A stretch of DNA of 64,000 nucleotides. It comes from Halorhabdus sp. CBA1104. Lineage in GTDB: Archaea; Halobacteriota; Halobacteria; Halobacteriales; Haloarculaceae. Position 1 is the stretch's first letter. The number at the start of each line of letters is the position of its first letter. A program made the position numbers and the translations under genes. Location of the stretch: the NCBI RefSeq assembly GCF_009690625.1, contig NZ_CP033878.1, forward strand, positions 1-64,000. The letters are read 5' to 3'. Below, in pieces: positions 4,582 through 41,392 of this stretch. The notes under the pieces are model-generated. The model ran no database searches and was not told the DNA's origin. It saw nothing but the letters and a program-made list of their open reading frames with translations.

Positions 4582-4649
4582 CGCTCGCTATTGCTTCGTT
4601 GCGGGCGCTACCTATTGAATCCACCGGATCCGGGGGTGCGTCGACGTGA
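4578..4649 (+). CDS. 23-aa possible linker ORF before the large winged-helix gene
   Basis: GTG at 4578 to TGA at 4647-4649, overlapping both neighbours by GTGA. At 23 residues it may serve mainly to carry ribosomes into the start at 4646 rather than to make a functional peptide. Confidence 0.3.
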   Translation: MTLAIASLRALPIESTGSGGAST

Positions 4650-18287: not shown

Positions 18288-18297
18288 GGTTATACGC
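18288..18297 (+). promoter_or_regulatory. TATA box for the first GHKL cassette
   Basis: GGTTATACGC, preceded by AGTAAAA, is centred about 28 nt upstream of the ATG at 18321. This spacing predicts a transcript starting at or within a few bases of that ATG. Confidence 0.6.
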
Positions 18298-18320
18298 CAC
18301 GCCTACCACAGGTCGGGGAC

Positions 18321-18416
18321 ATGGGTCGAAAAAGACTATGCCCTGCTCAGATTCGTCGTCCCTCGATGGCACTCCCTTTGCTGGACCAAACACGGTTTAG
18401 CCATCGGAAAAGATGA
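18321..18416 (+). CDS. 31-aa leader ORF overlapping the GHKL ATPase start
   Basis: ATG at 18321 to TGA at 18414-18416. The ORF is placed for leaderless translation and its stop overlaps the ATPase start (ATGA at 18413). The peptide is Arg-rich (begins MGRKRLCPAQIRRP, ends SHRKR). The second cassette has the same device (26902-27027), which makes chance less likely. The probable role is translational coupling or attenuation. Confidence 0.5.
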   Translation: MGRKRLCPAQIRRPSMALPLLDQTRFSHRKR

Positions 18417-20409
18417 GCGGAGAACCACTCGACGTAGATTTCGAGAAGCAAGACTCTGGTGCAGAGTTCAACGGTGACGTCCCGACGAAGCACATCTTCG
18501 AAGAGAACTACGACAACTATTACGAGACGTTCGTCCGAGAGGTACTCCAGAACGCTAACGACGCGGGATTGGACAACGACGACCCAGTCCGCGTACGATT
18601 CACCTTCGAGGTTCTCTCGGGTGATGAACTGGACGACTTCAAGGAGACGATAGATTGGGACGAACTGGAGAGACACTTCCGTGCCCTCATCGGTGAAGAC
18701 CACATCCTTCGGCTCGACGAGTATCTCGATACACTCGAAGACACTGGCGAGATGCTCGTCCTCCGGATTGACGACTACAACACGATCGGTCTCGTAGGAG
18801 ACGAAGACGCGCGGTCCGGAAAGACTCCCTATACATCACTCGTACGGGATTGGCAAGTGACGTACAAAGAAGGAACCAGTTCCGGTGGGAGCCACGGTGT
18901 CGGGAAGAGCGTGCTGTGGGCGTCGTCGGGCGTCTCGACAGCTCTGTTCAACTCGAGACCCGCCGACCCCTCCGGGGATCGAACATCCCCACGTCTAATC
19001 GGTCGGTCGATACTTCCAGATCACTATTTGGACAACGACGCCACCGACCACCATCACCACGGCAAGTCGTGGATCGGGAGAGAGTCGTCCGACAACGACG
19101 TTAGTCGTCCGACTTCTGTGTGGGGATCGGAAGCGGAGGAACTGGCGAGTCGTCTCGATATGGATCGACCAGACGAGGTCCCCGGGACGTCGATCCTCAT
19201 TCCCGGTTTCTGTAGTCCAACGGGCAACATCCGTCCTGCAGTAGAAAACGTCATCCCGGAGTTCGTCCGCGCTGCGGCCCGGAACTTCTGGCCGGCGATC
19301 TACCGTGAACAGCTAGAGGTCGAAGTGCGGCGGGCGGGTGGGGACGAGTACGAGATTACGAACGAGTCGCTCGATCAGGTCCCCGAAGTCGCGCCATTTA
19401 TCGCGTGCTACGAGGGACGAGAGGATCCAGTCGACGAGATATCCGATCCTGGGGACGTCGGTGTCACTACGATACCGATCGAGTTCACTCCGAAAGATCA
19501 GGACTCGGAAATCTCCGGAGAGGCGACCCTCTGCGCCCGGAAGAAAGACCCGAGTGACGACGCCGATCCAGAACACGATCTCACGAACCACACCGCCCTC
19601 TTCCGCGGAGCGGGGATGATAGTGGATTACGAATCAAAGTCCGAACCGGCAGTATACGGGGACGACTACCATGGAGTCCTCATCGCTGGAGAAGCCCGCC
19701 TGTGGGGGATACCGACGGTATCGACCCGGACCCAGATACCGAGTCTGCAGTCGACGAGTTCTTGACCGCGGCAGAACCCGCATCGCACGATCGCTGGGAC
19801 TCCACTCCCATGCTGCGCAAGAAGTACAAATTGGGGTACGCGAAGACGGCACGTTCGCTCCAGGGAGAGGCGTTGAATCGGAAGCTGATAGAACTCGTCC
19901 AGAACGAGCGCGATATGGGTGGCCGCTTCGTGTCGTCTGTCGCCCAGCACCTCCCGGACTTCGATCAAGTCTCGACAAATATTCCCGAGGAAGGGGAGTC
20001 AGAGGACGATGATGACGACGAGACATCGTCGACACTAGAGGTAGACTGGCAGTGGGAGTTCGACGACAACAAGTGGATCTTCTCCGGGTGGGTCGAACCG
20101 ACGGACGAACCAGAGGGTGAGTGGGGTGTCGAGATCTCGATCCCGAAGAAGGGCGAAGACGGTGCAACGACCGGATACGAGAACGTCGCAGACGTGAGCT
20201 CCACCACTGGCGGAACAATCGTGACTCAGCAGGAATCCCCCAGAGACGGGCGATCGGATCGGGTCGGGATCGTGCGAGCCGAAGCCGATGTCGACGGATT
20301 CGAATTCGAGTGTCAGTCCGAGCGACTCGAGTCCTTGGACCCGTTCTCGGGCCACGGCGGCGAGACGACCCTCGGACTCACTCGTTCCGACCCGGGAGGT
20401 GACGACTGA
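18413..20409 (+). pseudogene. GHKL (Bergerat-fold) ATPase, cassette 1, broken by a one-base frameshift
   Basis: ATG at 18413. The N-terminal part (450 codons) shows the N-box EVLQNANDAG (about 43-52), a D-x-N-x-x-G type motif in LRIDDYNTIGL (117-127) and a G2/lid box GGSHGVGKSVLW (158-169), the ATP site of Hsp90/MutL/MORC-type GHKL ATPases. The frame breaks at a run of five G (19704-19708). A second frame from 19702 continues collinearly with the intact paralogue at 27024-28922 (PASHDRWDST aligns with PEHDDWQST) to 20409. One added G would restore a protein of about 665 aa. It may be a true mutation, a sequencing error, or frameshifting. The C-terminal half is beta-rich. Confidence 0.75.
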
Positions 20410-21386
20410 TGCCCGTCCTCTACGAAGAGGCGTTTGGTGAGATCGACTTGGAACTGACAGAGTACGAATTCGACAACTCTGGATTGGGTGAATTCGATTC
20501 TCCTCGTCGGCCGTCACTGAAACAGTATACCGACTCCGGTTGGACCGAGATTACCCTGTCTGGAGAGATTACTCTCCCAGCGAGTACACTCGAGTTGTTC
20601 CCCAACGACGAGCGGGCGGATCCACCTGGTGAACTTCTCCTCGCGATCGACTGCCTAGACACCCACTATCGATTCGGGACCACAATCGAGGACAGTGATA
20701 TCGAGGCCACGACCTACACGTTCGAGGAGACTCTATCTCGGGACTACGCCTACGGTGACGTAGAGCTGCGCCCGATCTTGGTCCGTACCGAGCCCTGTGA
20801 CGAGGAGAAGTACGCTCAGTATCCGTACATGCGGATTGCCGACGGCCCGGAAGCAATCGTCTCGTTCGACGACGTGGAGACCGAAGGGTCGAATCTCATG
20901 GACGTACGGTTCGAGAGTTTCGAGAAGAGGGAAGTCGTCCCCGACCACAACCTCTACTACCTCGATAGGACCGACGTCAGTAGCCCCCGGGTGTGGGTCA
21001 ACGAAGACTACGAACTCATCACCCGAGTCCTGGACCACGATGCACACACTGGGTGGGCTGCGGACATGCAGTCCGGTCTCGCCCCTTGGATCGCGAACAA
21101 CGTCGTCTCCGAACTGGTGCTGTGGGCGATTCTCTGTGCCGAGGACGGAGAGTTCGACGCGGACTGGCAAGAGCCTCTACTAGAGAAGTACGGCCCCGAT
21201 ATCTACGAGGCCATGGACGCAGAAGAGCCCGAAGAACTACACGAGCAGTTGGCGGAGGGTGGAGACGAGGCCCACTATCTCGTCAACGTGGTCAACAAAG
21301 TCGTTCAAGACCAGGTCAGAGTGACACCCCCGTTGGAGGAGTTCATCGAGAACCAAGCGACCGACTACTTCTTGGAGGGGAGTTGA
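20409..21386 (+). CDS. Cassette 1 second protein, unrecognised (325 aa)
   Basis: ATG at 20409 overlaps the ATPase stop by one base. Residues 1-180 are beta-rich and residues 200-325 helical. It is clearly related to the protein at 28926-29957: both share an FP-x-DE...PP stretch, a C-x-DT-x-YR element, VELRPxLVRT and a central LYYLD followed by P-x-(V/L)W-(V/I)N. No catalytic motif is obvious. Its conserved place between the ATPase and the DUF6339-like gene suggests an obligate partner or adaptor. No family name is recognised. Confidence 0.65.
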   Translation: MPVLYEEAFGEIDLELTEYEFDNSGLGEFDSPRRPSLKQYTDSGWTEITLSGEITLPASTLELFPNDERADPPGELLLAIDCLDTHYRFGTTIEDSDIEATTYTFEETLSRDYAYGDVELRPILVRTEPCDEEKYAQYPYMRIADGPEAIVSFDDVETEGSNLMDVRFESFEKREVVPDHNLYYLDRTDVSSPRVWVNEDYELITRVLDHDAHTGWAADMQSGLAPWIANNVVSELVLWAILCAEDGEFDADWQEPLLEKYGPDIYEAMDAEEPEELHEQLAEGGDEAHYLVNVVNKVVQDQVRVTPPLEEFIENQATDYFLEGS

Positions 21387-21389
21387 ACG

Positions 21390-22118
21390 ATGGCACGACT
21401 GTACGAACTCACAGTGAATGGACGAAAGGACGTCGACGACGAGTCGTTCCTCTTCGGAGGGGAAGACTACGACGAAGAGTGGGCAAGGAGACACCGGAAA
21501 GAGACAGAACTACGTGCCGACTTGGATCGCGTCGAAGAGAAGCTCGAAGAGGCGATGGACAAGTACGATCCCGAGGACGAGGAGACAGAAGGCATCGAGA
21601 AGATAGACCAGTTCGTAGCGCCGACGATTCACGACGCGATCAACATCACCCCACGCGAGGCCGCCCGAGAGGGGATCTGGCACTACCTCGCCGTCGTCGA
21701 ATTTCCAGAATTCGTCCGCCATCGGTGGCCACCCGACGCAACACAACGAACCAGGCAATCGATGAAAGAGAAGTTTCTCGGTCGGCACCGAGACGTCTAC
21801 TCGAATGCTTTCCACCGGCTCTGGTGGATTGCCGAGCTGACCCACAACTCGAACTTAGACGACGAGTACCGCCGTACCGTCGAAGCGCTGGAAACTCAGC
21901 GGTTGGCAAACACCATCTTCGACCGCGACTTCCACCGTTCACCCGAGGTCGTCCAAGCCTGTGTAGAGGCTCTCGCGGGAGAGTCCAACGACGTCATCGA
22001 ACAGGTCACCTACCGTATCAACCACGGATTCTCGGCTGTCTCTCTCGAAGCGATGTCTCAGACAGAGATCCAGGACCGCGTGGAGACCATTCGCGACGAG
22101 ATCGTCTATCGCGACTAG
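21390..22118 (+). CDS. Cassette 1 DUF6339-like protein (242 aa)
   Basis: The gene starts three bases after its neighbour. The core has the features I associate with the DUF6339 family: WHYLAVVEFPEFVRHRW, MKEKFLG, and then SNAFHRLWWIAELTH in the middle. The ending is helical. A close relative lies at 29959-30651. I recall DUF6339 proteins near methyltransferases and GHKL ATPases in bacterial restriction-type loci, but the biochemical role is unknown to me. It converges with the McrC-like gene after 15 bp. Confidence 0.65.
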   Translation: MARLYELTVNGRKDVDDESFLFGGEDYDEEWARRHRKETELRADLDRVEEKLEEAMDKYDPEDEETEGIEKIDQFVAPTIHDAINITPREAAREGIWHYLAVVEFPEFVRHRWPPDATQRTRQSMKEKFLGRHRDVYSNAFHRLWWIAELTHNSNLDDEYRRTVEALETQRLANTIFDRDFHRSPEVVQACVEALAGESNDVIEQVTYRINHGFSAVSLEAMSQTEIQDRVETIRDEIVYRD

Positions 22119-22133
22119 ACGGACGAAGAGTTA

Positions 22134-23573
22134 TCAGAAGGGGATCTTTGGGCTATCTCCGTACTCGTAAACTGTCAACTCGTCCGGGTACGTATCGAAG
22201 TCGTACGGAGATTCGTCCACGAAGAGAGCGGCCTCGATTCGGTCGTCCTCTAACAGTTCTCCGGAACTCGCGAAGAACTCTTTGCCCCCGCTCTCGTGGA
22301 CGTGCAGTCCAGATACCGTCTCGAGTATTTGTTCGACTCCTTCGCGAACAGTCTTTTGACTTTTGGAGTACTTCACTTCGCCCAGCATCACTTTGTCGAG
22401 TTCTCTCGACTCGAGGTCTCTCCGAACGACTACGATATCCGGACGACGGTTGACCGTATCGGCTGTTCTCGCTCTCGATATCTCGTCGTAGAACGGCGCG
22501 AACGTTCGAACGAATCGTCGCTTCTGTGAGAAGAAGTCGGCGTTAGTTTCGTCCGTTTCGGGAGGTCTCGAATCACGATCGGAGGTCTGGAATCGAAGTC
22601 CTGCCGGGTTGTGGGAGTCGTGGAACAACGTGTACTCGTCATCCGAGGTGCTCCATTTCGCAACCACTCCACTCTGTGCCGATTGGCGAACGAGTTCGAG
22701 TCGCGGTGATGGTACCGATTCCAGAAGCTTGAACGCCCAGTAGAACTCGAAGAGTACCTCGGTGCCGTCGGAGTCGATCGAGGAACTCTCTGGTCCCGGA
22801 GTCAAGAAGAACTGTTTGAGAAGCCGCCGAGCCTCACTTGGATAGAGATCGTGTCTTTGGAGTCGGCGGTAGTACTGGAGTAACGTGGCCGCTTCCCTGT
22901 ACAACTCCGATCGAGCCCTGGACACATTGTCGATATCTTCGAACGGAAGTCGTTCGTCTGGTTCGTCTATCTGATTCAGGTACGGATTTTCGTCCAACGT
23001 CTCTCTGAGGTGATGCGGGTACTGCTCTTGGTCTGTCCACGGAGCAGCCCACGCGTAGTCCGTGTCAGAGTCGACGATACCCCGGATCCGCTGTTCGACG
23101 ATCTCGTCGATGACGTACAGTAACCGTTTCAGAACGCGGTTCTCGGGTAGATCGAACCGTTTCGTGGGTTCACCGTACGCGAAGACACGTTCGGCGTTAC
23201 CCGGTCGTTTCCCTCTCGCGGCAATAGTTTCTCTCCAGTCTACCGGGCCTCGGATCAAATCTTCCGTAATCTCGATCGGGCGGCCCATCGTCGTCTTGAG
23301 TCGACGGATCCGATCGGGAAGTTCTTCGACGAAGGGGAGAACACCATTCACCTCTCTCCCGGTGTCGGTCTCGATCTTCCCTTGAGTGAGGACGAAGTAC
23401 AGATCGAGCAACTCGTCGAGGTCTTCGATTTTCAACGAGGGGGTGGCCTTCTCCACGAACGAGTCGACACGTATCCCCTCCGCGACGTACGTGTTGAACA
23501 ATTCTGCGACGTCGCGGACGAGAGTCTCTCTATCGGTCTTTTCAAGCCCGTTCCCCTCGGATTCGGTCGACAT
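22134..23573 (-). CDS. McrC-like PD-(D/E)XK nuclease (479 aa)
   Basis: The N-terminal 370 residues are helical with McrC/LlaJI-like features (conserved NRVLKRLLYVIDEI). The C-terminal part carries a nuclease core: PD in NRRPDIVVV (about 378-379) and E-x-K in KVMLGEVKYSK (about 399-401), followed by a helix with Glu and Gln. This is the arrangement of McrC-type restriction subunits, which cut DNA when driven by McrB. The start at 23573 lies three bases after the McrB-like stop, so the two are cotranscribed. Confidence 0.75.
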   Translation of the reverse strand: MSTESEGNGLEKTDRETLVRDVAELFNTYVAEGIRVDSFVEKATPSLKIEDLDELLDLYFVLTQGKIETDTGREVNGVLPFVEELPDRIRRLKTTMGRPIEITEDLIRGPVDWRETIAARGKRPGNAERVFAYGEPTKRFDLPENRVLKRLLYVIDEIVEQRIRGIVDSDTDYAWAAPWTDQEQYPHHLRETLDENPYLNQIDEPDERLPFEDIDNVSRARSELYREAATLLQYYRRLQRHDLYPSEARRLLKQFFLTPGPESSSIDSDGTEVLFEFYWAFKLLESVPSPRLELVRQSAQSGVVAKWSTSDDEYTLFHDSHNPAGLRFQTSDRDSRPPETDETNADFFSQKRRFVRTFAPFYDEISRARTADTVNRRPDIVVVRRDLESRELDKVMLGEVKYSKSQKTVREGVEQILETVSGLHVHESGGKEFFASSGELLEDDRIEAALFVDESPYDFDTYPDELTVYEYGDSPKIPF

Positions 23574-23576
23574 CGA

Positions 23577-25580
23577 TCACGCTCCGAACCGATCGAAGTC
23601 GTTGCTCGTCAAGTCGAAGTACTCCCGCCCGAACTCCAACAGCTCTGATCTGTCGAGATCCGGATCCTCAAGCTCGATCAACTCCTCTAAGAGTGCGACT
23701 TGATCCCGAGTCGGGAGTCCTTCGAACTGCGGAAGTACGTACATGGTGACGGCACCTGTGAAATCCCCGTCGGTCGCCTGAACGAACTGCAGGACGTCTT
23801 TGGCGATCGCAGGTCCGATGTCTCGGGAATCGCCCTCGTTCACACGTCTCCACAGCTTCGCGACATCACGGTAGTAGCTGCCCGAATCTTCGATCTCGTC
23901 CCAGGCATCAACGTAGCGCTGGACGAGGCCGATATCGATCTCGCTCGGATCGGGTGCCGGGACTGTCACGAACGCGAAGCGACGCATGAACGCGAAACTG
24001 AGATCGTAGAGTGACGTCTTGTCGTACGTATTCATCGTCGCGAGTAACCTCCAATCGTCCGGAATGACGTACCTATTCTCGGTCGCATCCGCGGTCGACG
24101 CACCCGTCGAACCGTCGACGACGACACGCGATTCGTTCTCGTGTTCGAACGGGAGTGTCACCGTTCCTCCAGTCAACGCCGTGAAGAGAGATCCGAACGC
24201 CTTGTCGATGTCGCAGCGGTTGATCTCGTCGATGACCAGCCACTGACTCGACGCCGAAGTGTCCCCACCTTCGAACGTCTCTACGAAGATACCTGGTGTG
24301 AACTCTAACTCGCCACTCGCGCCGGGTCGATATCCGCCGATCGTGTCGAACGTGGACCAGTCTGCGGTTGCTGTGACTGTCCGGTGTCCTCCAGGGCAAC
24401 TCGCCGAAGCGACTGCCTCCGCCAGTTCTGTCTTCCCAGTGCCCGGAGGGCCCGTGAATATGACGTGTTTTCCCGTCCGAAGGGCGGAGAGAACCCGTCC
24501 GACGAGAGTCTCCGTATCCGGGAACACGATGTTGTCCAAGTCGACTTCGTCGACTGCGGCTGGAATTTCGGGAGACGGTCGTTCTCGAGTCGTCTCGTCC
24601 GCCGATCCGAGGTGATCCTTCAGTTCCGACTCAGTCAGCGAACCAGTATACAGTAACTCTCGAACCACATCCTCGAACGTGTTCCCGTCCAATCGGGCGA
24701 AGGCGTGACCAGCGATCCCGTCGCTCACATCGACGGTCGTCCACTCTTCGCTCACGGGGAGCCAGACGACCGAGACCTGGTGTTCGTGGGCATCGTTCTC
24801 TTCACGGATCTTCGATGGGTGCTTAGCGTTGTAAGGAGCGACTACACGTCCGATTCCGTACACCCGCGATTCACCACCGTAGCGGTGTTTAGCTACGACG
24901 ATGTCGTCTTTCCTCAATTCCTCTTGAAAGAGATACGCTTGATACTCGCCATATTGGTGACTCGACTCGTCGTATCGAGAGACCTCTTCGATCCGCTCTT
25001 CTCGAGACTCGTATCCTACACTTTCGACTAGTGAGTGACCGAGCGATGCGATCGAACGGTCGCTCCAAACCTCCCAGAGGTCTGCTCCCTCACCTGGTGT
25101 GATCTGCCAGAGATCACGGTCTCCCAATGCTTCCATCACGTCTGCAGTATCGGGTTGAACTTCACGGGCCGTTCCGTCGTCTTCGATTAGAATTCGGGTG
25201 CCCCGCTCCTCCAGTTGTCGCGATAGTTTCGCCGCATCGTCGTCACTCAGATCGTAATAGATATCGTCGTTAGAGAGGCGGTCGAGACCCTCTAGCTCGC
25301 CGGTATCGATACGATACACTGGATCCTCGAATTCGAACCGGGCTTGATTGGGGAAGTCGTACTGGTGACCCTCCAATGCCCCGGGAACCAGGGTTTGGAG
25401 ACCGTCCGTCTGGGCTTCGAAGGGTCCGAAGATGACGCCAGCCTCGAAATCGTGGAGAAAGAGCGAATCTCCACTTTGTACGTCGTGATCCCCCATCCGA
25501 TCTCCCCCTCCTACCAACTGTCTACGTAAGCACTCCTGTCGCGTCTGCCCGTCACAGTGGAACTTCCACGCGTTCGTCAT
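23577..25580 (-). CDS. McrB-like AAA+ GTPase/ATPase with N-terminal DCD-like domain (667 aa)
   Basis: I use the ATG at 25580 rather than 25496 because residues 1-100 then form a complete DCD-like domain: AWKFHCDGQTRQECLRRQL, then GDSLFLHDFEAGVIFGPFEA. Residues about 160-290 look like a second PUA/EVE-type reader (WSDRSIASLG and VYGIGRVVAPY with VVWLPV). The AAA+ part has Walker A GPPGTGKTE (377-385), Walker B WLVIDEINRCDID (447-459) and the McrB signature LLATMNTYDKTSLYDLSFAF. In McrBC systems this subunit recognises modified DNA and drives the nuclease. Two reader regions in one McrB are unusual. An inverted repeat overlaps its TATA region. Confidence 0.8.
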   Translation of the reverse strand: MTNAWKFHCDGQTRQECLRRQLVGGGDRMGDHDVQSGDSLFLHDFEAGVIFGPFEAQTDGLQTLVPGALEGHQYDFPNQARFEFEDPVYRIDTGELEGLDRLSNDDIYYDLSDDDAAKLSRQLEERGTRILIEDDGTAREVQPDTADVMEALGDRDLWQITPGEGADLWEVWSDRSIASLGHSLVESVGYESREERIEEVSRYDESSHQYGEYQAYLFQEELRKDDIVVAKHRYGGESRVYGIGRVVAPYNAKHPSKIREENDAHEHQVSVVWLPVSEEWTTVDVSDGIAGHAFARLDGNTFEDVVRELLYTGSLTESELKDHLGSADETTRERPSPEIPAAVDEVDLDNIVFPDTETLVGRVLSALRTGKHVIFTGPPGTGKTELAEAVASASCPGGHRTVTATADWSTFDTIGGYRPGASGELEFTPGIFVETFEGGDTSASSQWLVIDEINRCDIDKAFGSLFTALTGGTVTLPFEHENESRVVVDGSTGASTADATENRYVIPDDWRLLATMNTYDKTSLYDLSFAFMRRFAFVTVPAPDPSEIDIGLVQRYVDAWDEIEDSGSYYRDVAKLWRRVNEGDSRDIGPAIAKDVLQFVQATDGDFTGAVTMYVLPQFEGLPTRDQVALLEELIELEDPDLDRSELLEFGREYFDLTSNDFDRFGA

Positions 25581-25600
25581 TGCTCCACCCTGGCAGGGCT

Positions 25601-25619
25601 CGACAATTAACAGTTGTCG
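25601..25619. promoter_or_regulatory. Inverted repeat over the McrB-like promoter
   Basis: CGACAA-ttaacag-TTGTCG, with 6-bp perfect arms. Its AT centre (TTAA) lies about 28 nt upstream of the ATG at 25580, so a bound repressor would block TBP. No cognate regulator gene is obvious in the island. Confidence 0.45.
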
Positions 25620-25673
25620 TCGTTTCTTGACTCTCGACAGAGGTGGGTGAAAACTTCAGTACCAATCCAAGAA

Positions 25674-26786
25674 TCAGTCGTTCTTCACCGTAGCCCCGAC
25701 CGGAGACGACTCGGCATCAACGTGGTCGAAGATCGCTTTGCCGATGTACTCTGCCAGCCGTGGCGGAACGGCGTTCCCAATCAACCGCCCGACGTTCTTC
25801 ACGCCCACGTCGTCGAAATCGTCGTAGAACTCGTAGTCCGGTGGGAAAGTCTGCAAGAGTGCCCCCTCGAGAAGCGAGAGCGCACGATCCTGATCCGTAT
25901 CGTAGTGGCCGAAGCGACCACTCCCGTAGTTGTAGAATTGGGTCGTGATCGTCGGTGCCGGCTCGTCAGGTCGCATGCGACTGTACGGTGCCTTGTACGA
26001 CCGTCCGCTGTCGCGCGTGTGACAGTCGGCGAGTAGGTGGTCTAATCCTTTCTCTTCCCAGCGAGTCCAATCCCCGCCAGGGACCATGTTCCGGATCCGT
26101 TCGAGATTCAGGTCGGAGAGGCTCCGTGCCCGGTGGAGATCGTTCTCCGGATGAGTCTCTCCCGCTTCGACCGGTGGAAGGTGATCGATTGCCTCCTTGA
26201 CGGTGGGATACTCGGACTCGTCCGTGTAGGGTGGATCCGGGAGGCGAATTGGACCTTCACGGGACGCGAGGAGGACCCATCGTTTGCGCTTCTGTGGAAT
26301 CCCATACTCCGGAGCGTACACCTTCCGGTTCTTGGGATCGTTGAGGAAGTACCCCATCTCTTCGATCGACTCTTCGAACGCCTGATAAGTGTCGTCGTTA
26401 CGGACTTGCAGGACGTTCTCCGTGACGACGACGTCCGGTTCGACGTCCTCTACGATCCTCTTGAACTTGGTGAGTAATCCCCACTTCCCGTGGTCCGATG
26501 CACCGTCTTGTTCCGCGTGGTTCATCGTCGAGTACGGCTGGCACGGTGCACAGGCCGCCAATATCGTCAGGTCGGCGTCCCACGGGTACATTCGATGGAT
26601 GGGCTCGGGATTTTGCGCCAACGGCTCGACGTCCGTCAATCGGAAGGTAGAGTCCGTGTTCGTGTTGTAGGGATACGCACTGTGTTGGTCGATATCGAGA
26701 CCGCGTACGACGTCGATGCCGGCTTGCTCGAGGCCGTACGTCAGCCCACCGGCACCGCTGAACATATCGACCGCGTAGGCTTCCAT
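25674..26786 (-). CDS. DNA cytosine-C5 methyltransferase (370 aa)
   Basis: Start ATG at 26786, supported by a TATA element about 28 nt upstream. The motifs are in order: I DMFSGAGGLTYGL (7-19), IV CAPCQPYS with the PCQ nucleophile Cys (81-83), VI TENV (122-125), VIII PQKRKRWVLL, IX-like region with PAPTITTQFYN, and X GRLIGNAVPP near the end. The variable target-recognition region lies between VIII and IX. Length and completeness fit an active 5mC enzyme. It lies between the McrBC pair and the divergent second cassette. An ordinary McrBC would cut methylated DNA, so this pairing implies a special recognition rule. Confidence 0.85.
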   Translation of the reverse strand: MEAYAVDMFSGAGGLTYGLEQAGIDVVRGLDIDQHSAYPYNTNTDSTFRLTDVEPLAQNPEPIHRMYPWDADLTILAACAPCQPYSTMNHAEQDGASDHGKWGLLTKFKRIVEDVEPDVVVTENVLQVRNDDTYQAFEESIEEMGYFLNDPKNRKVYAPEYGIPQKRKRWVLLASREGPIRLPDPPYTDESEYPTVKEAIDHLPPVEAGETHPENDLHRARSLSDLNLERIRNMVPGGDWTRWEEKGLDHLLADCHTRDSGRSYKAPYSRMRPDEPAPTITTQFYNYGSGRFGHYDTDQDRALSLLEGALLQTFPPDYEFYDDFDDVGVKNVGRLIGNAVPPRLAEYIGKAIFDHVDAESSPVGATVKND

Positions 26787-26810
26787 GACAGCATCATCGG
26801 GAGTCTCTGT

Positions 26811-26876
26811 GTAAAACTTTTCCAGCGAGGCTCGTCGACAGACGTGACCCGGTGCGAGGTAATCGGCAATTCTAAG
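26811..26876. promoter_or_regulatory. Divergent promoters of the methyltransferase and cassette 2
   Basis: On the minus strand AAAGTTTTAC (26811-26820) lies 25-34 nt upstream of the methyltransferase ATG. On the plus strand TTCTAAG (26870-26876) lies 26-32 nt upstream of the leader-ORF ATG at 26902. Both predict leaderless transcripts, with the start points about 115 bp apart. Confidence 0.5.
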
Positions 26877-26901
26877 GGCCGCCCATCGTTCGTACGTTGG
26901 T

Positions 26902-27027
26902 ATGTGCGACAGGTTCCGTACTCTCCGGATAGAAGACGTCTCTTCCCCCTCTCCCGAGTCGTCTACACCTCTCAACGGCGGACGAACAGATCGCTCGCCG
27001 GCTGCCCGAGAAGAGACACGACCATGA
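26902..27027 (+). CDS. 41-aa leader ORF overlapping the second GHKL start
   Basis: ATG at 26902 to TGA at 27025-27027, overlapping the ATPase ATG at 27024. It begins MCDRFRTLRIEDVSSPSP and ends Arg/Pro-rich. As in cassette 1, it is placed for leaderless translation. The sequence is not obviously related to the first leader, so position rather than peptide may matter. Confidence 0.45.
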   Translation: MCDRFRTLRIEDVSSPSPESSTPLNGGRTDRSPAAREETRP

Positions 27028-28922
27028 TGGAGCGAGGAGTTCACGATGTCGACGATGCCGGGTGGTTCTTCTTCAGCGGTGGCCCCGGTGCCCCCAGATA
27101 CGGGGGCGATCCCACGAAGCACGCCGTCGATCACGATACCGAAACCTTCGTTCGGGAAGTCCTCCAGAACGCGAACGACCAGGCACTCGACGACGACCCG
27201 GTGAAGGTGACGTTCGACCTCCTCACGCTCTCTGGTGCCGACAAAGCGGCGTTCCTCGACGCCCTTCAGTGGAACGACGGTCTCGGGGACCACATCCAAG
27301 CTGTCGCGAGCTCCGACAACGGTCGCAGCTACGAGGATCTCTCGAAGCGTCTCGACGATCCCGAGTCGGAACTCCGACTGCTGGTCGTCGAAGACGAGAA
27401 CACGACCGGGTTGACGGGGCAGTGGGACGAAGACTCGAACTTCGCGGCACTCGTCAGAGACGAACTCTACAGCAGTAAACGCGACGACCGAGCTGGCGGC
27501 TCGTACGGTCTCGGTAAGTCCGTCTTGTGGACGTTCTCCGGTGCTTCTACCGTCGTGTTCAACTCGCGACTGGCAGAGGCAGAACACGAAACGGGTGCTA
27601 GACGACGGTTGATCGGCAGGACGAAGCTCCCGACCCACCGTCTCGACGACGAGAACTCGAGCTATCAGGGTGCAGGTTGGTTGTGTCGGCCGACGGAGGG
27701 AGATAACGGCACGCGCCCCGAAGCAATCTGGGACGATCGTGCAGCTCGTCTCGCGGAGCGCCTCCTACTCGACCGGCCGAATACGCCCGGAACGAGCATC
27801 ATGGTCGTCGACTATCGAGATCCGACTCGCGACGAGCGTCGCGAGTTGGAAGAGTTGGCCGACGAGTTCGTCGAAGCCGCGGTGAAGTACTTCTGGCCCG
27901 CGATCCACCGCGGCGACCTCGAAGTCGACGTCAAGATGAACGGTGAAGAACGGGTAGCGGACGTACGTGATGTTCCATCGATTCGGCCGTTCCTCGAGTG
28001 TTTCGAGTCACGGGACGCGGACGATACGACGTTAGATGCACCAGGAGACGTCGCAGGGTTGGATGTTCCACTGTCTGTTCCACCTCGGTGGGACGGTGAA
28101 GAGACACCAGACGGAGAGGTCCGACTGGCAGCTCGACGTGCCTCGCCCGCCGACGACGATACACTCCTCAACCGGGTCGCACTGTTCAGAGGTGCGGGAA
28201 TGGTCGTGAAGTACCTCGACCAATCGCGCGTGGCCTATGGAGACCGTAACTTCCACGCAATCTTGGCCTGTGGTGAAGCCAAGACTGATCACGGGTCGAC
28301 GCCTGGTGATCGAGAAGTCGAACGGTTCCTCCGGTACGCCGAGCCCCCCGAACACGATGACTGGCAATCGACAGAAAATCTGCGTGAACAGTACCAACGT
28401 GGATATCGGAAGGCTCTCGACGAGATGTTCGACACCGTCCGTGACGGACTCAGACACCTCGTCGCGAAGACGGGCGGACAAACGAGGAATCTCACTGAAC
28501 GAGTACGGGATCGATTCCCCATCCACGGAGGGAGAGCACGATCGCGGCCGGCCCCTTCGCCGTCGACAGTCTTCGATATGTCTAGCGACTCGGCGTTCGA
28601 CGGAGATCGCTGGCGCTTCTCCGGGCACGTCGAACCAGTCGAAGACGAGTTCGAAGGCTGGACGGCGGAAATCTCTCTCACCGGTGTCGGAGAAGACGGT
28701 GCCCGATACGACGACGTCCCGATCGCGAGTGTCCGTTCCGAACACCCAGACGTGACGACCGACTGTGAAGATGGGGTCGCCAGGATCGTCGCCGGGCCGG
28801 ACGCCGACGCCGTCAGGTTCGACGGTGAGTCCGAACGGTTCGTAGAAGGCGGTGTGCGGAGTGGCGAGATCGGTGAGACACAACTCGAAATTCGAGCAGA
28901 ACTCGAGACGGGAGGGAGCTGA
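27024..28922 (+). CDS. GHKL (Bergerat-fold) ATPase, cassette 2, intact (632 aa)
   Basis: ATG at 27024 (an adjacent ATG at 27027 is equally possible). ATP-site motifs: N-box EVLQNANDQ (45-53), VEDENTTGL (122-130) and GGSYGLGKSVLW (158-169). The next 300 residues correspond to the transducer part of GHKL enzymes. The C-terminal 150 residues are beta-rich, with GDRWRFSGHVEP. It is related end to end with the cassette 1 ATPase but clearly diverged, so it is not a recent copy. MutL/MORC-like ATPases have been linked by comparative genomics to C5-methylation restriction systems (Iyer, Abhiman and Aravind, 2008). Here it probably acts as a DNA clamp or signalling ATPase. Confidence 0.8.
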   Translation: MMERGVHDVDDAGWFFFSGGPGAPRYGGDPTKHAVDHDTETFVREVLQNANDQALDDDPVKVTFDLLTLSGADKAAFLDALQWNDGLGDHIQAVASSDNGRSYEDLSKRLDDPESELRLLVVEDENTTGLTGQWDEDSNFAALVRDELYSSKRDDRAGGSYGLGKSVLWTFSGASTVVFNSRLAEAEHETGARRRLIGRTKLPTHRLDDENSSYQGAGWLCRPTEGDNGTRPEAIWDDRAARLAERLLLDRPNTPGTSIMVVDYRDPTRDERRELEELADEFVEAAVKYFWPAIHRGDLEVDVKMNGEERVADVRDVPSIRPFLECFESRDADDTTLDAPGDVAGLDVPLSVPPRWDGEETPDGEVRLAARRASPADDDTLLNRVALFRGAGMVVKYLDQSRVAYGDRNFHAILACGEAKTDHGSTPGDREVERFLRYAEPPEHDDWQSTENLREQYQRGYRKALDEMFDTVRDGLRHLVAKTGGQTRNLTERVRDRFPIHGGRARSRPAPSPSTVFDMSSDSAFDGDRWRFSGHVEPVEDEFEGWTAEISLTGVGEDGARYDDVPIASVRSEHPDVTTDCEDGVARIVAGPDADAVRFDGESERFVEGGVRSGEIGETQLEIRAELETGGS

Positions 28923-28925
28923 CGA

Positions 28926-29957
28926 ATGCCACGAGAGACACAGCGCCACCGGAGTACGATCTACCCGTTCCGGTATCGAGACGAGGGCCTACAGTTCGAC
29001 GTCGAACACTACAGCATGAACGGTGGGGGTGTCGAAGCGTTGGATCTGCCAGCTGGCCAGAATACGATTGACGTCGATCCAGAGTCACCGTCGAAGACGA
29101 GTCTCGCCGACGAACCTTGGGAGAGGGTCACTGTCTTCGGGTCTGTCGAAGTCTCCGGAGACGTCCTTGATTATCTGTTCCCACCCGACGAACAGGATGC
29201 GCCGCCGGCGAAGCTCTACGTCGCGATCCGCTGCCACGACACGATCTACCGAGACAGTGAAATCATTGAAGACCCACTGACCGAACCCGGCGAGTACGAG
29301 GTGACGATTCGACTCGACTGGGACGACTTCCGGGGTCGTGTCGAACTCCGTCCGTACTTGGTCCGAACGACCGACCGGACTGGAGACGATCAATACGCGA
29401 GCACACGAAACACCAAAGTCGCGAGTGGGGACCGGTACGAAGTCGTCGTCGATCGATGGGTCGACGACAGTCCGCCGATGATAGACGGTGAAGAGGCGCG
29501 GTTCTCGAAGAGTGATCACCTCCCCGAAGGGGAGAAGTTGTACTACCTCGACTTCCGAGACGAGACACGTCCGAAACTGTGGATCAACGCCGACCACCCA
29601 CGTATCGCCGACGTGTTACGGAGCGAGGGATCGGTCGGCGCGGAACCCCGATTGCGTGACGTCGTGCTGGATCAGATTAGTTACGGCGTCTGGTCGCAGT
29701 TGATCCTCAGAGCGGCCGGTGCGATCACCCGGAGTGGCGATGTCGAGTACGAGTGGCAAGAGACAGTCCTGGAAGCCTTCGCACTCGACTTGTACGACGT
29801 GGACGACATCGAAGACGCGAAGCAACTGCTCCGTGAAGACGTTCGGGACCCCGAAGAGTTGGGCCACCTCGCCTCACAGATCGACACGGAACTACAGGAG
29901 TTCATTGAGCCGCGATCACAACTCATCAACCTCATGGAGGAGGGACTACGGATCTGA
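28926..29957 (+). CDS. Cassette 2 second protein, unrecognised (343 aa)
   Basis: The gene starts three bases after the ATPase stop. It is homologous to 20409-21386: FPPDEQDAPPAKLYVAIRCH, VELRPYLVRT, LYYLDFRDET and LWINADHP are the matching landmarks. The N-terminal half is beta-rich and the C-terminal 120 residues helical and acidic. Strict conservation of order in both cassettes argues for a complex with the ATPase. No enzymatic signature is seen. Confidence 0.65.
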   Translation: MPRETQRHRSTIYPFRYRDEGLQFDVEHYSMNGGGVEALDLPAGQNTIDVDPESPSKTSLADEPWERVTVFGSVEVSGDVLDYLFPPDEQDAPPAKLYVAIRCHDTIYRDSEIIEDPLTEPGEYEVTIRLDWDDFRGRVELRPYLVRTTDRTGDDQYASTRNTKVASGDRYEVVVDRWVDDSPPMIDGEEARFSKSDHLPEGEKLYYLDFRDETRPKLWINADHPRIADVLRSEGSVGAEPRLRDVVLDQISYGVWSQLILRAAGAITRSGDVEYEWQETVLEAFALDLYDVDDIEDAKQLLREDVRDPEELGHLASQIDTELQEFIEPRSQLINLMEEGLRI

Positions 29958-29958
29958 G

Positions 29959-30651
29959 ATGACCCGAGAAGACACACTCAAAAGGCTGGACGAGGCGGGA
30001 CGGCGGCTCGTCGGCGAATCGTTCCTCAGGGGTGACGTCGAGTTAGATCCAGACGAAGTGGCCGAGTTCGTTTCACCCCTCCCGAACGAACCGACGGGAG
30101 ACTTAGAGCGCCTTGATCGAGCAGTCGCCGACGTCGTCTCGTCGCACGAGCGGTACGAAACGGACATGGACGGCGAACTCGCCGAAGAGGTACACCGGTC
30201 CCTGGACGTGACTCGACGTGTGGCTGGCGATCCCGGACTCTGGCACTGGCTTGCCGTCGTGAAGTACCCCGAGTTCGTGCGTCACCGGTGGAAGTTCACG
30301 TCCGAGGCGGCGATGCGCGAGAAGTTCCTCGGTGCCGGTTCGGACCTCTACTCGAACGCGTTACACCGCCTCTGGTGGATCGCCGAACTGACGCACGACG
30401 GAGACGACTACTCGCTTACGCGAACCGTCTTCGACAACCAGACGATGGTGAACAAGGTGTTCGATCGCTGGTTCGCCCGGTACCAACCCGCCGTCGTCGC
30501 GATCTGTGACGAACTCTCCGACGAGCCATCGTGGGTTATCGACGAGACGACCCGCCGGTTCAACCACGCACTCACCAACATTCAACTCGAAGGAGTCTCT
30601 GAAGTAGAGGCCCGAGAGTTAGTCCGTCAGATCGTCGACGACGTCCGATAA
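29959..30651 (+). CDS. Cassette 2 DUF6339-like protein (230 aa)
   Basis: ATG at 29959 directly follows the stop at 29955-29957. It shares with the cassette 1 protein the core WLAVVKYPEFVRHRWKF, MREKFLGAG and SNALHRLWWIAELTH, then a helical tail with RFNHALTNIQLEGVSE matching YRINHGFSAVSLEAMS. The N-terminal 80 residues differ between the copies and may give specificity. The gene ends the cassette and converges with the glycosylase gene after 17 bp. Confidence 0.65.
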   Translation: MTREDTLKRLDEAGRRLVGESFLRGDVELDPDEVAEFVSPLPNEPTGDLERLDRAVADVVSSHERYETDMDGELAEEVHRSLDVTRRVAGDPGLWHWLAVVKYPEFVRHRWKFTSEAAMREKFLGAGSDLYSNALHRLWWIAELTHDGDDYSLTRTVFDNQTMVNKVFDRWFARYQPAVVAICDELSDEPSWVIDETTRRFNHALTNIQLEGVSEVEARELVRQIVDDVR

Positions 30652-30668: not shown

Positions 30669-31301
30669 TCATTCACTGTCTGTAGATCGGTAGTAGTCAC
30701 AGTACTCGGCGGCGAAGCAATCTGTGCATCCCGGATCCCGCTTCTGGCAGCGTATCGCACCGAAATCGAGGAGAGCCAAGTTGTAGCGGCGTGCCTCCGA
30801 ACCGTTCGTCGAGAGTAACTCGTCTGCGAACGCCCGGCGTTCCGTCTGGCCGTCCGGAAACGCACTTCCGAAGATCCGGTCGTAGACGCGGACGACGTTG
30901 CGGTCGACGATCGGGTGTGGGCGCTCACACGCGAAACAGAGTGTCGCGTCCGCGACGTACGGGCCGACACGCGGGAGCGACGTCAGCTCGTCTCGTTCCT
31001 CTGGTAATGACTCGTACCGCTCGGCAATCTCGACCAGCGCCTCCGTGCGCATCCGCTGGAACCCGAGCGGTTCGATCGTCGACTCGATCCGTTCGGGATC
31101 GGCGTCGTCCAAGCTATCCAGTGTCGGAAACCGATCCAAGAACGTCGGATAGACATCGGCGACGTTGTCGGCGGGCGTCTGTGTGAGGAAGAACTCGGCG
31201 ACGAACACCTCGTACAGCGAGCGATCTTCGTCGCGCCACGGATACTCGCGACTGTTGTCGTCGAACCACGAGAGTAAGTTCTGGCGAAACCGATCCGCCA
31301 T
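30669..31301 (-). CDS. Mig-type HhH-GPD DNA glycosylase with 4Fe-4S cluster (210 aa)
   Basis: Start ATG at 31301. It has the YPWR element (20-23), helix-hairpin-helix LPRVGPYVAD (109-118), catalytic Asp in PIVDRNVVRV (133) and the cluster ligands Cys185-x6-Cys192-x2-Cys195-x5-Cys201. At the position of the EndoIII catalytic Lys there is Tyr (115), where MutY has Ser. Tyr is the hallmark of the archaeal thymine-DNA glycosylase Mig, encoded beside a cytosine methyltransferase on a Methanothermobacter plasmid. It probably removes T from G:T mismatches left by 5mC deamination, the job Vsr does in bacteria. MutY-like adenine removal is the alternative. Confidence 0.75.
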   Translation of the reverse strand: MADRFRQNLLSWFDDNSREYPWRDEDRSLYEVFVAEFFLTQTPADNVADVYPTFLDRFPTLDSLDDADPERIESTIEPLGFQRMRTEALVEIAERYESLPEERDELTSLPRVGPYVADATLCFACERPHPIVDRNVVRVYDRIFGSAFPDGQTERRAFADELLSTNGSEARRYNLALLDFGAIRCQKRDPGCTDCFAAEYCDYYRSTDSE

Positions 31302-31594: not shown

Positions 31595-32401
31595 ATGTCG
31601 AGTGAACTCGAGGGAAGCGAGGACGTCCCGAAGATTCTGCACGTGTTCGCTGACTACGGTACCGAAAGCGAGATTCTCTCCTGGTACGGTGACGTCGTCA
31701 GGATCGGTATCGATGCGAGAGATCTCAACGATAGCGAGCCGATCACCGCCGACGCACACGTCCTCAAAGAAGACGATAACGAAGATGAGGATGAGGATGA
31801 GGACAGGGGCCTCCCGATCAAAGACGACGTCATATTCGATCTAGGTGTGTTCCATCCCGTCTGTTCGAAGTGGGCTGCGACAACGAGTATATCGGGAGAT
31901 CCTGACGATCACGTGAATATGATCCCGTCGGCCCGCTATCTCGCCGACAAATACACCGATCACTACGTGATCGAGAATGTCCCCAAAGCACCACTGCGGG
32001 ATCCGGTCGTCCTCAATGGAAAGATGTTCGGTCTTCCAATCGAGTACGAGCGAGCCTTCGAGACGAACTTTCACGTCCCGCAGCCACCACAGTACAAGCG
32101 TTTCTGGGGTCGCGGGGAAGACGAGAGTGAGACCGCTGAGACGTCGTCGTTCTTCTTCACCGAGCGCTCTCGGAAATGGTGGGCCTCCGTCAAGGGATAC
32201 CTGCCCGGCGACTATCCGAAACAGCACTTGGCCAAGAACACGATCCCGGCACCGTACTTTCACCACATTCTCCGCGCCTGGTTGCGTTTGTACGAAGACG
32301 AGAACGGTATCGACTACTCGGACTACGACGAGCGGATGGAAGTGCGACGTCGAGTGGAGGCAAACCGGACTTTGGGGGAGTACGGCTCAGAATCGGTATA
32401 G
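31595..32401 (+). CDS. Divergent C5-methyltransferase-like protein (268 aa)
   Basis: A phage-type C5 methyltransferase relative: the segment ENVPKAPLRDP (127-137) followed by MFGLPIEYERAFETNF matches the ENV motif region and following strand of viral enzymes. The expected PPC is HPVC (87-90), keeping a Cys in place of the nucleophile, and motif I is degenerate (HVFADYGTES). An acidic Asp/Glu repeat (61-70) is inserted before motif IV. The protein is shorter than usual and lacks a clear target-recognition domain and motif X. It may be inactive, specialised for another modification, or an accessory subunit. The 31302-31594 gap holds no other gene. Confidence 0.6.
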   Translation: MSSELEGSEDVPKILHVFADYGTESEILSWYGDVVRIGIDARDLNDSEPITADAHVLKEDDNEDEDEDEDRGLPIKDDVIFDLGVFHPVCSKWAATTSISGDPDDHVNMIPSARYLADKYTDHYVIENVPKAPLRDPVVLNGKMFGLPIEYERAFETNFHVPQPPQYKRFWGRGEDESETAETSSFFFTERSRKWWASVKGYLPGDYPKQHLAKNTIPAPYFHHILRAWLRLYEDENGIDYSDYDERMEVRRRVEANRTLGEYGSESV

Positions 32402-33810: not shown

Positions 33811-34020
33811 ACGCCCGCGACCACGTGATAGCCTGTGCCACGCGGCCCCCCTCGCGCTGGTACAGGCGGGCGGTGGCGATCGCGCGTAGTACTCCGGGCT
33901 GCACCGTCCACATTGTGAGTGTGGCTTTGAGGGCCCATGTGTCGAGTGGGCCCGCGCCGAGCGCGAGCCCGTCCACGCCTGCACAGCGCGGGCGTCGGCA
34001 GGCTTTTTGCGCTCGGCGCT
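33807..34020 (-). pseudogene. Degenerate copy B of the small gene at 37278-37526
   Basis: The minus strand shows RCAGVDGLALGAGPLDTW, then LRAIATARLYQREGG, a frame change at a run of six C (plus strand, about 33846-33851), and the intact ending PRGTGYHVVAGV. It is about 70 percent similar to the other copies by eye. The N-terminus is replaced. Confidence 0.6.
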
Positions 34021-34069
34021 GGTTGCCCGGCGTAGAGGATCGGCGGACCACTCCGGCGAGGACGAGAAG

Positions 34070-34162
34070 ACGGATTTGACCCGCAAGCGACTGATCGAGT
34101 ACTACAAGGAGCACGAGCTGACGGTTGGCGAGATCGCGGCCGCAACCGGATATAAAGAAGAT
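34070..34162 (+). pseudogene. Truncated helix-turn-helix gene fragment
   Basis: The frame reads DLTRKRLIEYYKEHELTVGE then IAAATGYKED, the start of a helix-turn-helix protein, and then runs into sequence antisense to the HEAT-repeat gene. The break near 34162 coincides with a sudden drop in GC, marking the left junction of the AT-rich module. Confidence 0.5.
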
Positions 34163-34174
34163 CCATCCTGTAAT

Positions 34175-35647
34175 CTACACTTCTTGATCATTCTCCTCAA
34201 GAAGTTCTACAAGACTCATGTCTTCGTCGTCTTCAAGATCCTCAATAAACTCCAAATCCATATCATTCACATCCTTGGTCGACATAAGTTCATCATCCCA
34301 CTGATTGATTTCCTGTAGGAAGGATCGGCCATGGGTTAGGATACTGTGGCGACTTTCAGATTCAAGAAACTCAATTACAACATCATCAATGTCGTCAGGG
34401 AGTAGTTGTTCATCTTCAGACGCGACATGATAATGGAAATCTAGAACCTCTTCGTACCAATTATGCGATTCTGAGTGGTCTCGGTAGAAATCCTTTGACC
34501 GGTCGATCAAGGGCTGGAGGTGTTTTGCGTCAACACTGGCCAGATCACTTAACAGAAGTGCGAAATTCTCCGGGTAATTCATTCCCCGAGATTCGTCCTC
34601 CAAAATCTGGTCTAACTCATCATTGAGGATGGTCGCTAACTCCTCTGGACGGGAACGGTAGATCTCCACAAAAGCCTGTCTCCATCCCTCCGGTGACGAG
34701 GGGTATCGACCTAACATAAATTTGGAAAGCTTATCGACAATTTCTGAAAGATCCGAATCTGGATCACAACCTTCCTTTTCTAAATAGATCGGTGCATGTC
34801 CGATTTTCCGATATCCTACATCAGCAACAGCTTTGAGTTGCCAGCTAGCATCTAAACCTGCTTGTTCAGAGAACTCTTTTAATCGAACATCGACATCGTC
34901 TCCGATGAGATCGGGGCGTGAATATCCGATTGACGTTAAGGCATATACAAGCCAGGCTTGACGATCATCTTGCTCTTCAAGCAACTTCTGAATCTTTGGC
35001 ACCGAATTTGCGACAAGGGCAGGACGTTGATAGCCGATCGTCCCGAGTGCTTTTGCACATTCTTTGGCCACCTCCCAATCGGTACTTCTTTTGTACTCTT
35101 TCCGGTCCAAATTTTGAATTAGAATGTCAATCGCAGTTTCAGCAATCTCAGGAGAAACTTCATGGAGGTATCCAGGTCCAACTGGGGCGGTGACAAATCG
35201 ATGTTGATCAAGGTCCTCTTCCATACTGGAAGAAGGCATTGGATCTACCCCACCCCATTGGGGTAGTTTTCGGTCATTGGGCCTTGCACTTAGAAAATAC
35301 GCCAACGAGAGAGCGGCTTCTTTTGCAGGGTGAACGCGGTTTTCGTTGACTTGTTGGGAGAGGGCCGAGACGACGTCATTCAAATCACAGGCCCTCCTGC
35401 AAAGAATGATATTTTGGCGGAGAACTACTGCTGCATTAGCACCGATTTTGTACTCCTCATGGTTCAAACATTCACCAATAGCATCAATGAGAATTTCTCG
35501 AAGCGGATTGATTTCGTGTTGTCTGTTGATGGCCCACTGTTTCTCTCGAAAATCGTCAAAGAGTGTGGCTGGCTCGGACGAATCAAGTAAAGCCTCAGCC
35601 AGCGGAACGAATTCTTTCTGGTAGATATAGGCAACTCCAGTTGACAT
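34175..35647 (-). CDS. HEAT-like helical-repeat protein, AT-rich (490 aa)
   Basis: The gene is markedly more AT-rich than the defence island. The protein is almost entirely helical with repeated pairs (IDILIQNLDR..., ALGTIGYQRPALVANSVPKI, ALTSIGYSRPDLIGDD, AVADVGYRKIG), where the GY-x-(R/K) element recurs about every 35 residues, a HEAT-like pattern. The C-terminus is very acidic. No catalytic motif. Such proteins often serve as scaffolds or sensors. It is divergent from the membrane-zincin gene, with which it shares the AT-rich module. Confidence 0.55.
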   Translation of the reverse strand: MSTGVAYIYQKEFVPLAEALLDSSEPATLFDDFREKQWAINRQHEINPLREILIDAIGECLNHEEYKIGANAAVVLRQNIILCRRACDLNDVVSALSQQVNENRVHPAKEAALSLAYFLSARPNDRKLPQWGGVDPMPSSSMEEDLDQHRFVTAPVGPGYLHEVSPEIAETAIDILIQNLDRKEYKRSTDWEVAKECAKALGTIGYQRPALVANSVPKIQKLLEEQDDRQAWLVYALTSIGYSRPDLIGDDVDVRLKEFSEQAGLDASWQLKAVADVGYRKIGHAPIYLEKEGCDPDSDLSEIVDKLSKFMLGRYPSSPEGWRQAFVEIYRSRPEELATILNDELDQILEDESRGMNYPENFALLLSDLASVDAKHLQPLIDRSKDFYRDHSESHNWYEEVLDFHYHVASEDEQLLPDDIDDVVIEFLESESRHSILTHGRSFLQEINQWDDELMSTKDVNDMDLEFIEDLEDDEDMSLVELLEENDQEV

Positions 35648-35834
35648 GGATTGTGTGAATGACAGTTGTAGATTCAGGTAGCCAATAAAAATTCGGGGCC
35701 GGACAATCAGATGAATGAATCCAATTAGTCTCGGGACGAATAGATTTTCTCATCACACTCTAACATTCGCCAAAGGGAAACGATCCATCAAAACAACAAT
35801 CATAATCACAATACAGCCAGAAGTAATAGAATAT

Positions 35835-36449: not shown

Positions 36450-36526
36450 TCCCGGAAAATCAGTATCCTCTTCTTCGAATCTATGCAGCGGAACGACTTT
36501 TATAATTACCGCCAAAATACTGGATC

Positions 36527-41228: not shown

Positions 41229-41270
41229 ATCGACAACCGAACGGCCGTCGGGTATGTAAAGGTCGGGTAT

Positions 41271-41287
41271 GGAGCCCTCCCCGGGCA
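41271..41287 (+). repeat. attR core
   Basis: GGAGCCCTCCCCGGGCA, identical to the tRNA-Met 3' end at 2922-2938. Flanking bases differ (TACTTTATCC follows), so this is the right boundary of the element. Confidence 0.85.
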
Positions 41288-41392
41288 TACTTTATCCGTG
41301 GCTCGCGTCGGCGAGCCACTGCTCTGAGAATGCGTTGTGGCGGGCGGAGAATCCTCTGAGGGAGAGACATATTCGGGTTCTCGTCGTTCGGT

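What the first reader, a model, noticed from the sequence alone, without database searches (positions are those of the whole stretch)
18288..30651. Two GHKL ATPase-partner-DUF6339 cassettes enclosing an opposed McrBC-like and C5-methyltransferase unit
Seen: 18413-22118 and 27024-30651 have the same three-gene order and direction, with all three proteins pairwise related but diverged. Between them, on the other strand, are a PD-(D/E)XK McrC-like nuclease, a DCD-McrB-like AAA+ protein and a complete C5 methyltransferase. Known: MutL/MORC-like GHKL ATPases occur in C5-methylation restriction loci. Inferred: a composite anti-invader system in which the two ATPase cassettes give two specificities or a sensor pair for one nuclease. 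The unnamed second protein (325/343 aa) may be a new family.
Basis: partly seen in the sequence, partly recalled or inferred. Interest (0 to 1): 0.88.

Follow-up and report, generated by a model that had tools for sequence, protein, structure and literature searches.

The report
Modular cytosine-methylation defence island with paired cassettes
This salt-loving archaeon carries a DNA-defence island in which a DNA-marking enzyme and a three-gene ATPase cassette have evolved together as one unit, while second cassettes and DNA-cutting or helicase modules are swapped in and out from species to species.

Summary
Two related A-B-C cassettes (GHKL ATPase, unnamed protein, DUF6339) flank an opposed McrC-like, McrB-like and C5-methyltransferase group. 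One correction: the first ATPase gene is frame-shifted near 19,700.

The ATPase matches the text definition of paraMORC2 (Iyer 2008): GHKL motifs plus ExxxH, invariant in 84 of 84 aligned proteins. PADLOC lists the outer two proteins as candidate system PDC-M33.

In 27 of 392 Halobacteriales genomes with DUF6339, 23 have two to four copies. Cassette B and this methyltransferase occur in exactly the same 22 genomes, head to head, and their distances correlate at r=0.98. A MutY/MIG-type glycosylase and a second methyltransferase-like gene track them. DISARM sits beside 14 of 27 but correlates weakly (r=0.47). McrBC occurs only in this window.

Bacterial versions usually sit beside a C5 methyltransferase, often with Vsr.

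So the core is cassette B plus methyltransferase; partner cassettes and nucleases are exchangeable. No catalytic nuclease signature was found in the cassette proteins. Best reading: an ATP-driven DNA clamp gated by 5-methylcytosine that recruits a swappable effector, here probably McrBC. Co-occurrence is shown; mechanism is inferred.

The parts
18413..20409 (+). Cassette A gene 1: paraMORC2-type GHKL ATPase, read as two overlapping frames (18413-19765 and 19702-20409) because of a one-base frame slip near 19700
   Evidence: (PDC-M33A E 4e-24)
20409..21386 (+). Cassette A gene 2: unnamed protein (325 aa) of the family here called M33B
   Evidence: no library hit
21390..22118 (+). Cassette A gene 3: DUF6339 protein (242 aa)
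   Evidence: PF19866 E 1.4e-24; PDC-M33C
22134..23573 (-). McrC-like PD-(D/E)XK protein (479 aa), convergent with cassette A
   Evidence: motif; relatives always next to McrB-like genes
23577..25580 (-). McrB-like AAA+ protein with N-terminal DCD domain (667 aa)
   Evidence: (E. coli McrB structures E 8e-14)
25674..26786 (-). C5 cytosine methyltransferase MT1 (370 aa), head to head with cassette B
   Evidence: (DrmMII model 610 bits)
26787..27023 (.). Intergenic region between MT1 and cassette B; head-to-head arrangement seen in 22 of 22 genomes with this pair
27024..28922 (+). Cassette B gene 1: paraMORC2-type GHKL ATPase (632 aa), intact motifs incl. ExxxH (E440, H444)
28926..29957 (+). Cassette B gene 2: M33B (343 aa), predicted beta-sandwich plus helical domain
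29959..30651 (+). Cassette B gene 3: DUF6339 protein (230 aa), predicted all-helical fold without PDB match
30669..31301 (-). HhH-GPD DNA glycosylase of the MutY/MIG type (210 aa, 4Fe-4S cysteines)
   Evidence: MutY E 1.6e-33; MIG 1kea E 6e-28
31595..32401 (+). Methyltransferase-like protein 'dn2' (268 aa) conserved in related islands
   Evidence: (phrog_363 DNA methyltransferase E 1.5e-5)

Best explanation
A modular C5-methylation restriction/defence island. Core: methyltransferase MT1 marks the host DNA; the MutY/MIG-type glycosylase repairs T:G mismatches left by deaminated 5-methylcytosine; cassette B is the sensor machine. Its paraMORC2 ATPase dimerises on DNA as an ATP-gated clamp, and M33B and DUF6339 act as non-catalytic DNA- or partner-binding subunits. 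The clamp engages DNA lacking the mark and recruits or loads an exchangeable effector. The effector is DISARM in about half of related islands, GmrSD or a GIY-YIG-like protein in others, and most likely the McrBC-like pair (placed directly downstream of MT1) in this genome. Partner cassettes such as cassette A vary in lineage and probably change what is recognised or which effector is called; in this genome cassette A may be inactive. Shown: gene content, pairing, co-evolution of MT1 with cassette B, exchange of effectors, bacterial C5 MTase/Vsr association. Inferred: clamp action, sensing of unmethylated DNA, coupling to McrBC.
For: Cassette B and MT1 occur in exactly the same 22 genomes, head to head, distance correlation 0.98; GPD 0.91, dn2 0.90, DrmA only 0.47. 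MT1 occurs in 12/12 cassette genomes and 0/130 others of the family. In bacteria the homologous A-B-C cassette has a C5 MTase in 39/59 loci and Vsr in 24/59, many contigs being truncated; examples with database annotation are. M33B homology between domains: hhalign probability 96, E 4e-9. GHKL motifs and ExxxH are invariant in 84/84 rows, the motif given for paraMORC2, a family Iyer et al. placed in R-M operons with cytosine methylases and Vsr (PMC2292703). Exchangeable effectors: DISARM in 14/27, GmrSD, GIY-YIG-like by motif, McrBC here. MORC2 compacts DNA in vitro (PMC12216690, abstract only), a precedent for clamp action.
Against: No activity has been tested. McrBC co-occurs with the cassettes only once. 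In several loci no effector nuclease was identified, so recruitment of a nuclease is not proven to be needed. The cassette A ATPase gene is frame-shifted, so the two-cassette state may not exist as active protein here. McrB-like proteins with DCD-type N-domains often belong to modification-dependent systems (from memory), which would act independently of MT1. The correlation test does not correct for species phylogeny.
Confidence: 0.55

Rival explanations
1. The McrBC-like pair is an independent modification-dependent (type IV-like) system that landed in the MT1 operon; it shares only the address with the cassettes.
For: McrBC lies beside the cassettes only in this window. Nine McrBC relatives elsewhere show no C5 MTase in 11-17 kb. 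The McrB-like protein has an N-terminal DCD domain.
Against: It sits on the same strand directly downstream of MT1 (gap about 90 bp, then 3 bp), where related islands carry the glycosylase, dn2, GIY-YIG-like and partner-cassette genes.
Confidence: 0.4
2. Nuclease-free immunity: the paraMORC2 clamp itself blocks unmethylated foreign DNA by entrapment or compaction, and nearby nucleases are separate systems.
For: No catalytic nuclease signature in A, B or C. DUF6339 is an all-helical fold without PDB match. No nuclease family is shared by most bacterial loci. MORC proteins compact DNA (PMC12216690).
Against: Most haloarchaeal islands do have a nuclease or helicase module nearby; a cryptic nuclease in M33B or DUF6339 is not excluded; host-encoded nucleases could serve.
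Confidence: 0.2
3. MTase, McrB and McrC form a LlaJI/BsuMI-like type II system (from memory: C5 MTase with McrBC-like restriction proteins), and the cassettes are accessory.
For: Operon-like order MTase-McrB-McrC on one strand.
Against: MT1 exists in 21 other genomes with cassette B and no McrBC beside it; McrBC relatives lack a neighbouring MTase.
Confidence: 0.1
4. Several unrelated defence systems merely cluster in a hotspot.
For: ApeA, Pbe-like, Shedu and DISARM genes occur nearby in various islands.
Against: MT1 and cassette B are exactly co-distributed with r=0.98 and fixed head-to-head order, unlike DrmA r=0.47; the same ATPase/C5-MTase link recurs in distant bacteria.
Confidence: 0.1

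Closest known systems
paraMORC2 GHKL ATPases in restriction-modification operons (Iyer, Abhiman and Aravind 2008, PMC2292703)
   Same: GHKL motifs, C-terminal ExxxH, C5 methylase and Vsr neighbours, patchy spread in cyanobacteria, Gram-positives and archaea
   Different: The sections of the 2008 paper read here do not describe the A-B-C cassette with DUF6339, paired constant and variable cassettes, DISARM/McrBC partners or a glycosylase in place of Vsr
PADLOC candidate system PDC-M33
   Same: First and third proteins match PDC-M33A and PDC-M33C models (E 1e-23 and 1e-15 to 1e-21)
   Different: The middle proteins match no PADLOC model; MTase, glycosylase and pairing are not visible in that model set
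DISARM (class 2, DrmMII)
   Same: The MTase matches a full-length DrmMII model at 610 bits; DISARM genes flank the cassettes in 14 of 27 related islands
   Different: No DrmA in this genome; core DISARM genes absent here
McrBC / type IV restriction
   Same: AAA+ motor with MNTxD motif plus PD-(D/E)XK partner
   Different: Located directly behind a C5 MTase and between two paraMORC cassettes
MIG-type T:G glycosylase beside a C5 methyltransferase (Methanothermobacter; context from memory)
   Same: Short MutY/MIG-type HhH-GPD enzyme associated with a C5 MTase
   Different: Substrate specificity untested; part of a larger island

Membership tests
paraMORC2 | GHKL ATPase motifs (N box, G1, G2, GT) | tested here: met
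   E45, N49, D52, G129, G159/G162/G164, G256 invariant or nearly so in 84 rows; cassette A keeps them too
paraMORC2 | Conserved ExxxH in the C-terminal part of the S5 domain | tested here: met
   E440 and H444 at 100% in 84 archaeal and bacterial rows; S5 fold itself not modelled
paraMORC2 | Neighbourhood with cytosine methylase, Vsr or Z1-type helicase | tested here: met
   C5 MTase 39/59, Vsr 24/59; Z1 helicase and DUF4420
PDC-M33 (PADLOC) | M33A and M33C proteins side by side | tested here: met
PDC-M33 (PADLOC) | PADLOC model match for the middle protein | tested here: not met
   no PADLOC match for window A2/B2 at E<=1; homology to the bacterial middle protein shown by hhalign
DISARM | DrmA, DrmB, DrmC core | tested here: not met
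   no DrmA match in the window's genome
DISARM | DrmMII methyltransferase | tested here: met
   PDLC02651 610 bits over the full length
McrBC | AAA+ motor with MNTxD motif and adjacent PD-(D/E)XK protein | tested here: met
McrBC | GTP-driven, methylation-dependent cleavage | not testable with these tools
   needs biochemistry
LlaJI/BsuMI-type R-M | C5 MTase and McrBC-like genes inherited together | tested here: not met
MutY/MIG glycosylase | HhH-GPD domain and 4Fe-4S cysteines | tested here: met
   C-x6-C-x2-C-x5-C in the translation
MutY/MIG glycosylase | T:G versus A:8-oxoG specificity | not testable with these tools
   sequence alone does not settle it

The most novel reading that the evidence does not exclude
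A two-part, nuclease-independent immune clamp: a constant paraMORC2 cassette tied to its own C5 methyltransferase combines with variable partner cassettes to recognise and entrap DNA lacking the host mark, a prokaryotic counterpart of MORC-mediated silencing, with nucleases added only as optional effectors.
Probability: 0.18. Interest if true: 0.88.

Novelty: new variant of a known kind. Interest (0 to 1): 0.66.

Why it matters
Prokaryotic MORC-like ATPases were placed in restriction systems in 2008 from gene neighbourhoods, but how they work there remains poorly understood. This survey names one co-evolving unit (methyltransferase plus cassette B) that can be moved into a haloarchaeal laboratory strain, separates it from its interchangeable effectors (DISARM, McrBC, GmrSD, GIY-YIG-like), and gives a clear test of whether a MORC-type clamp can tell self from non-self DNA by 5-methylcytosine. 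It also suggests that part of what PADLOC files as DISARM in haloarchaea (DrmMII) belongs to a separable module.

Tried and rejected
Literature searches for PDC-M33 and DUF6339 gave nothing. phmmer of the ATPase, and a profile of it, against PDB sequences gave nothing, so GHKL assignment rests on motifs, the PADLOC model and relatives. Foldseek of M33B gave only weak beta-sandwich matches (PAD N-domains, PDE-delta/UNC119; query TM-scores about 0.2-0.3), not used for function. Foldseek of DUF6339 gave no match with E below 0.1. Rejected: MTase-McrB-McrC as an ancestral R-M unit. Rejected: the glycosylase as a restriction glycosylase, because bacterial islands often have Vsr as companion (inference). 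The first tree had a truncated row for cassette A; repeated, where cassette A is a long single branch outside the B clade. The phylum-level sample found no cassettes outside Halobacteriales. Viral contigs gave four distant relatives only.

Full report
1. What is there. Cassette A (18413-22118) and cassette B (27024-30651) have the same three-gene order on the plus strand. Between them on the minus strand lie a C5 methyltransferase (MT1, 25674-26786), a McrB-like AAA+ protein with a DCD domain and a McrC-like PD-(D/E)XK protein. The pairwise relations are real.

2. Names. Both ATPases match PADLOC PDC-M33A and both DUF6339 proteins match PDC-M33C, so the cassette is already listed as a phage-defence candidate. 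The ATPase has GHKL motifs and an ExxxH motif, both invariant in 84 aligned archaeal and bacterial proteins. Iyer et al. 2008 define paraMORC2 by that motif and place it in restriction-modification operons with cytosine methylases and Vsr. The middle protein has no family in Pfam, NCBIfam, PADLOC or PHROGs; bacterial middle proteins are its homologues by profile comparison.

3. Survey. DUF6339 occurs in 12 of 146 genomes of the family, all with two to four copies, and in 27 of 392 of the order, 23 with two or more; the sampled rest of the phylum has none. Gene maps of all 27 islands show a stable core. Cassette B and MT1 are in exactly the same 22 genomes, head to head, distance correlation 0.98; glycosylase 0.91; methyltransferase-like gene 0.90; DrmA 0.47 (no correction for species phylogeny). 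The five islands without this pair have another C5 MTase (MT2). Partner cassettes fall into several separate lineages.

4. Exchangeable modules. DISARM genes (full-length DrmA, B, C, E models in G063) are beside 14 of 27 islands, yet the window's genome has no DrmA, and DrmA also occurs without cassettes. GmrSD enzymes lie in three islands. A 508-aa protein with a GIY-YIG-like motif precedes one partner-cassette lineage (by motif only; no Pfam hit). McrBC is beside cassettes only in this window, and its relatives elsewhere lack a neighbouring C5 MTase.

5. Bacteria. A genome-wide scan plus plasmids gave 59 bacterial loci: a C5 MTase in 39, Vsr in 24, even though many contigs are short. Some carry a Z1 helicase and a DUF4420 PD-(D/E)XK protein as well. 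No nuclease family is shared by most of them.

6. Structure. M33B is predicted as a beta-sandwich plus helical domain (pLDDT 85, pTM 0.55); DUF6339 as an all-helical fold (pLDDT 94, pTM 0.90) with no PDB match. Conserved residues in either do not form a known nuclease site, though a cryptic one is not excluded.

7. Mechanism. Shown: composition, pairing, co-evolution, exchange. Inferred: MT1 marks self; the glycosylase limits mutation at deaminated 5-methylcytosine, as Vsr does in bacteria; the paraMORC2 dimer with its two partners clamps DNA lacking the mark and calls an effector, here probably McrBC. The link to McrBC is the weakest step; it may be an independent type IV-like passenger. A nuclease-free clamp is the most novel reading left open.

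8. Verdict. Observation mostly right, interpretation half right: the real unit is methyltransferase plus cassette B, not methyltransferase plus McrBC. It is a new variant of a known kind: a paired-cassette form of a paraMORC2/PDC-M33 C5-methylation system. In ten searches of the open-access library I found no description of this arrangement or of its DISARM link; subscription papers, preprints and supplements were not searched.

Noticed in passing
window 40020-41288: Tyrosine recombinase (Phage_integrase, E 1.7e-12), about 9 kb right of the island; a possible sign of a mobile element.
   Followed up: no
window 34000-37000: Stretch of 45% GC in a roughly 60% GC region with a HEAT-repeat protein (34175-35647) and a DUF3267 zincin-like peptidase (35715-36449).
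   Followed up: no
window 4646-6274: Open frame with 109-bit similarity to a DUF7845/HTH protein that lies beside cassette islands in three other genomes.
   Followed up: no
L042:18451-19974 and nine relatives: 508-aa protein with GLY...YVG motif (GIY-YIG-like), always just upstream of one lineage of partner cassette and with unusual codon usage.
   Followed up: partly
L036:7140-9173 (G023); G170 215588-217579 (L081): 678-aa HATPase_c protein next to the second methyltransferase in G023; a homologue in G170 is split in two frames.
   Followed up: no
L042:9887-11657 and relatives: Two unnamed proteins (331 and 252 aa) between DISARM drmC and cassette B in six islands, no match in Pfam or PHROGs.
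   Followed up: no
L109, L146-L153: Cyanobacterial cassettes run directly into a long C5 methyltransferase (641-689 aa) with an unassigned C-terminal part.
   Followed up: partly
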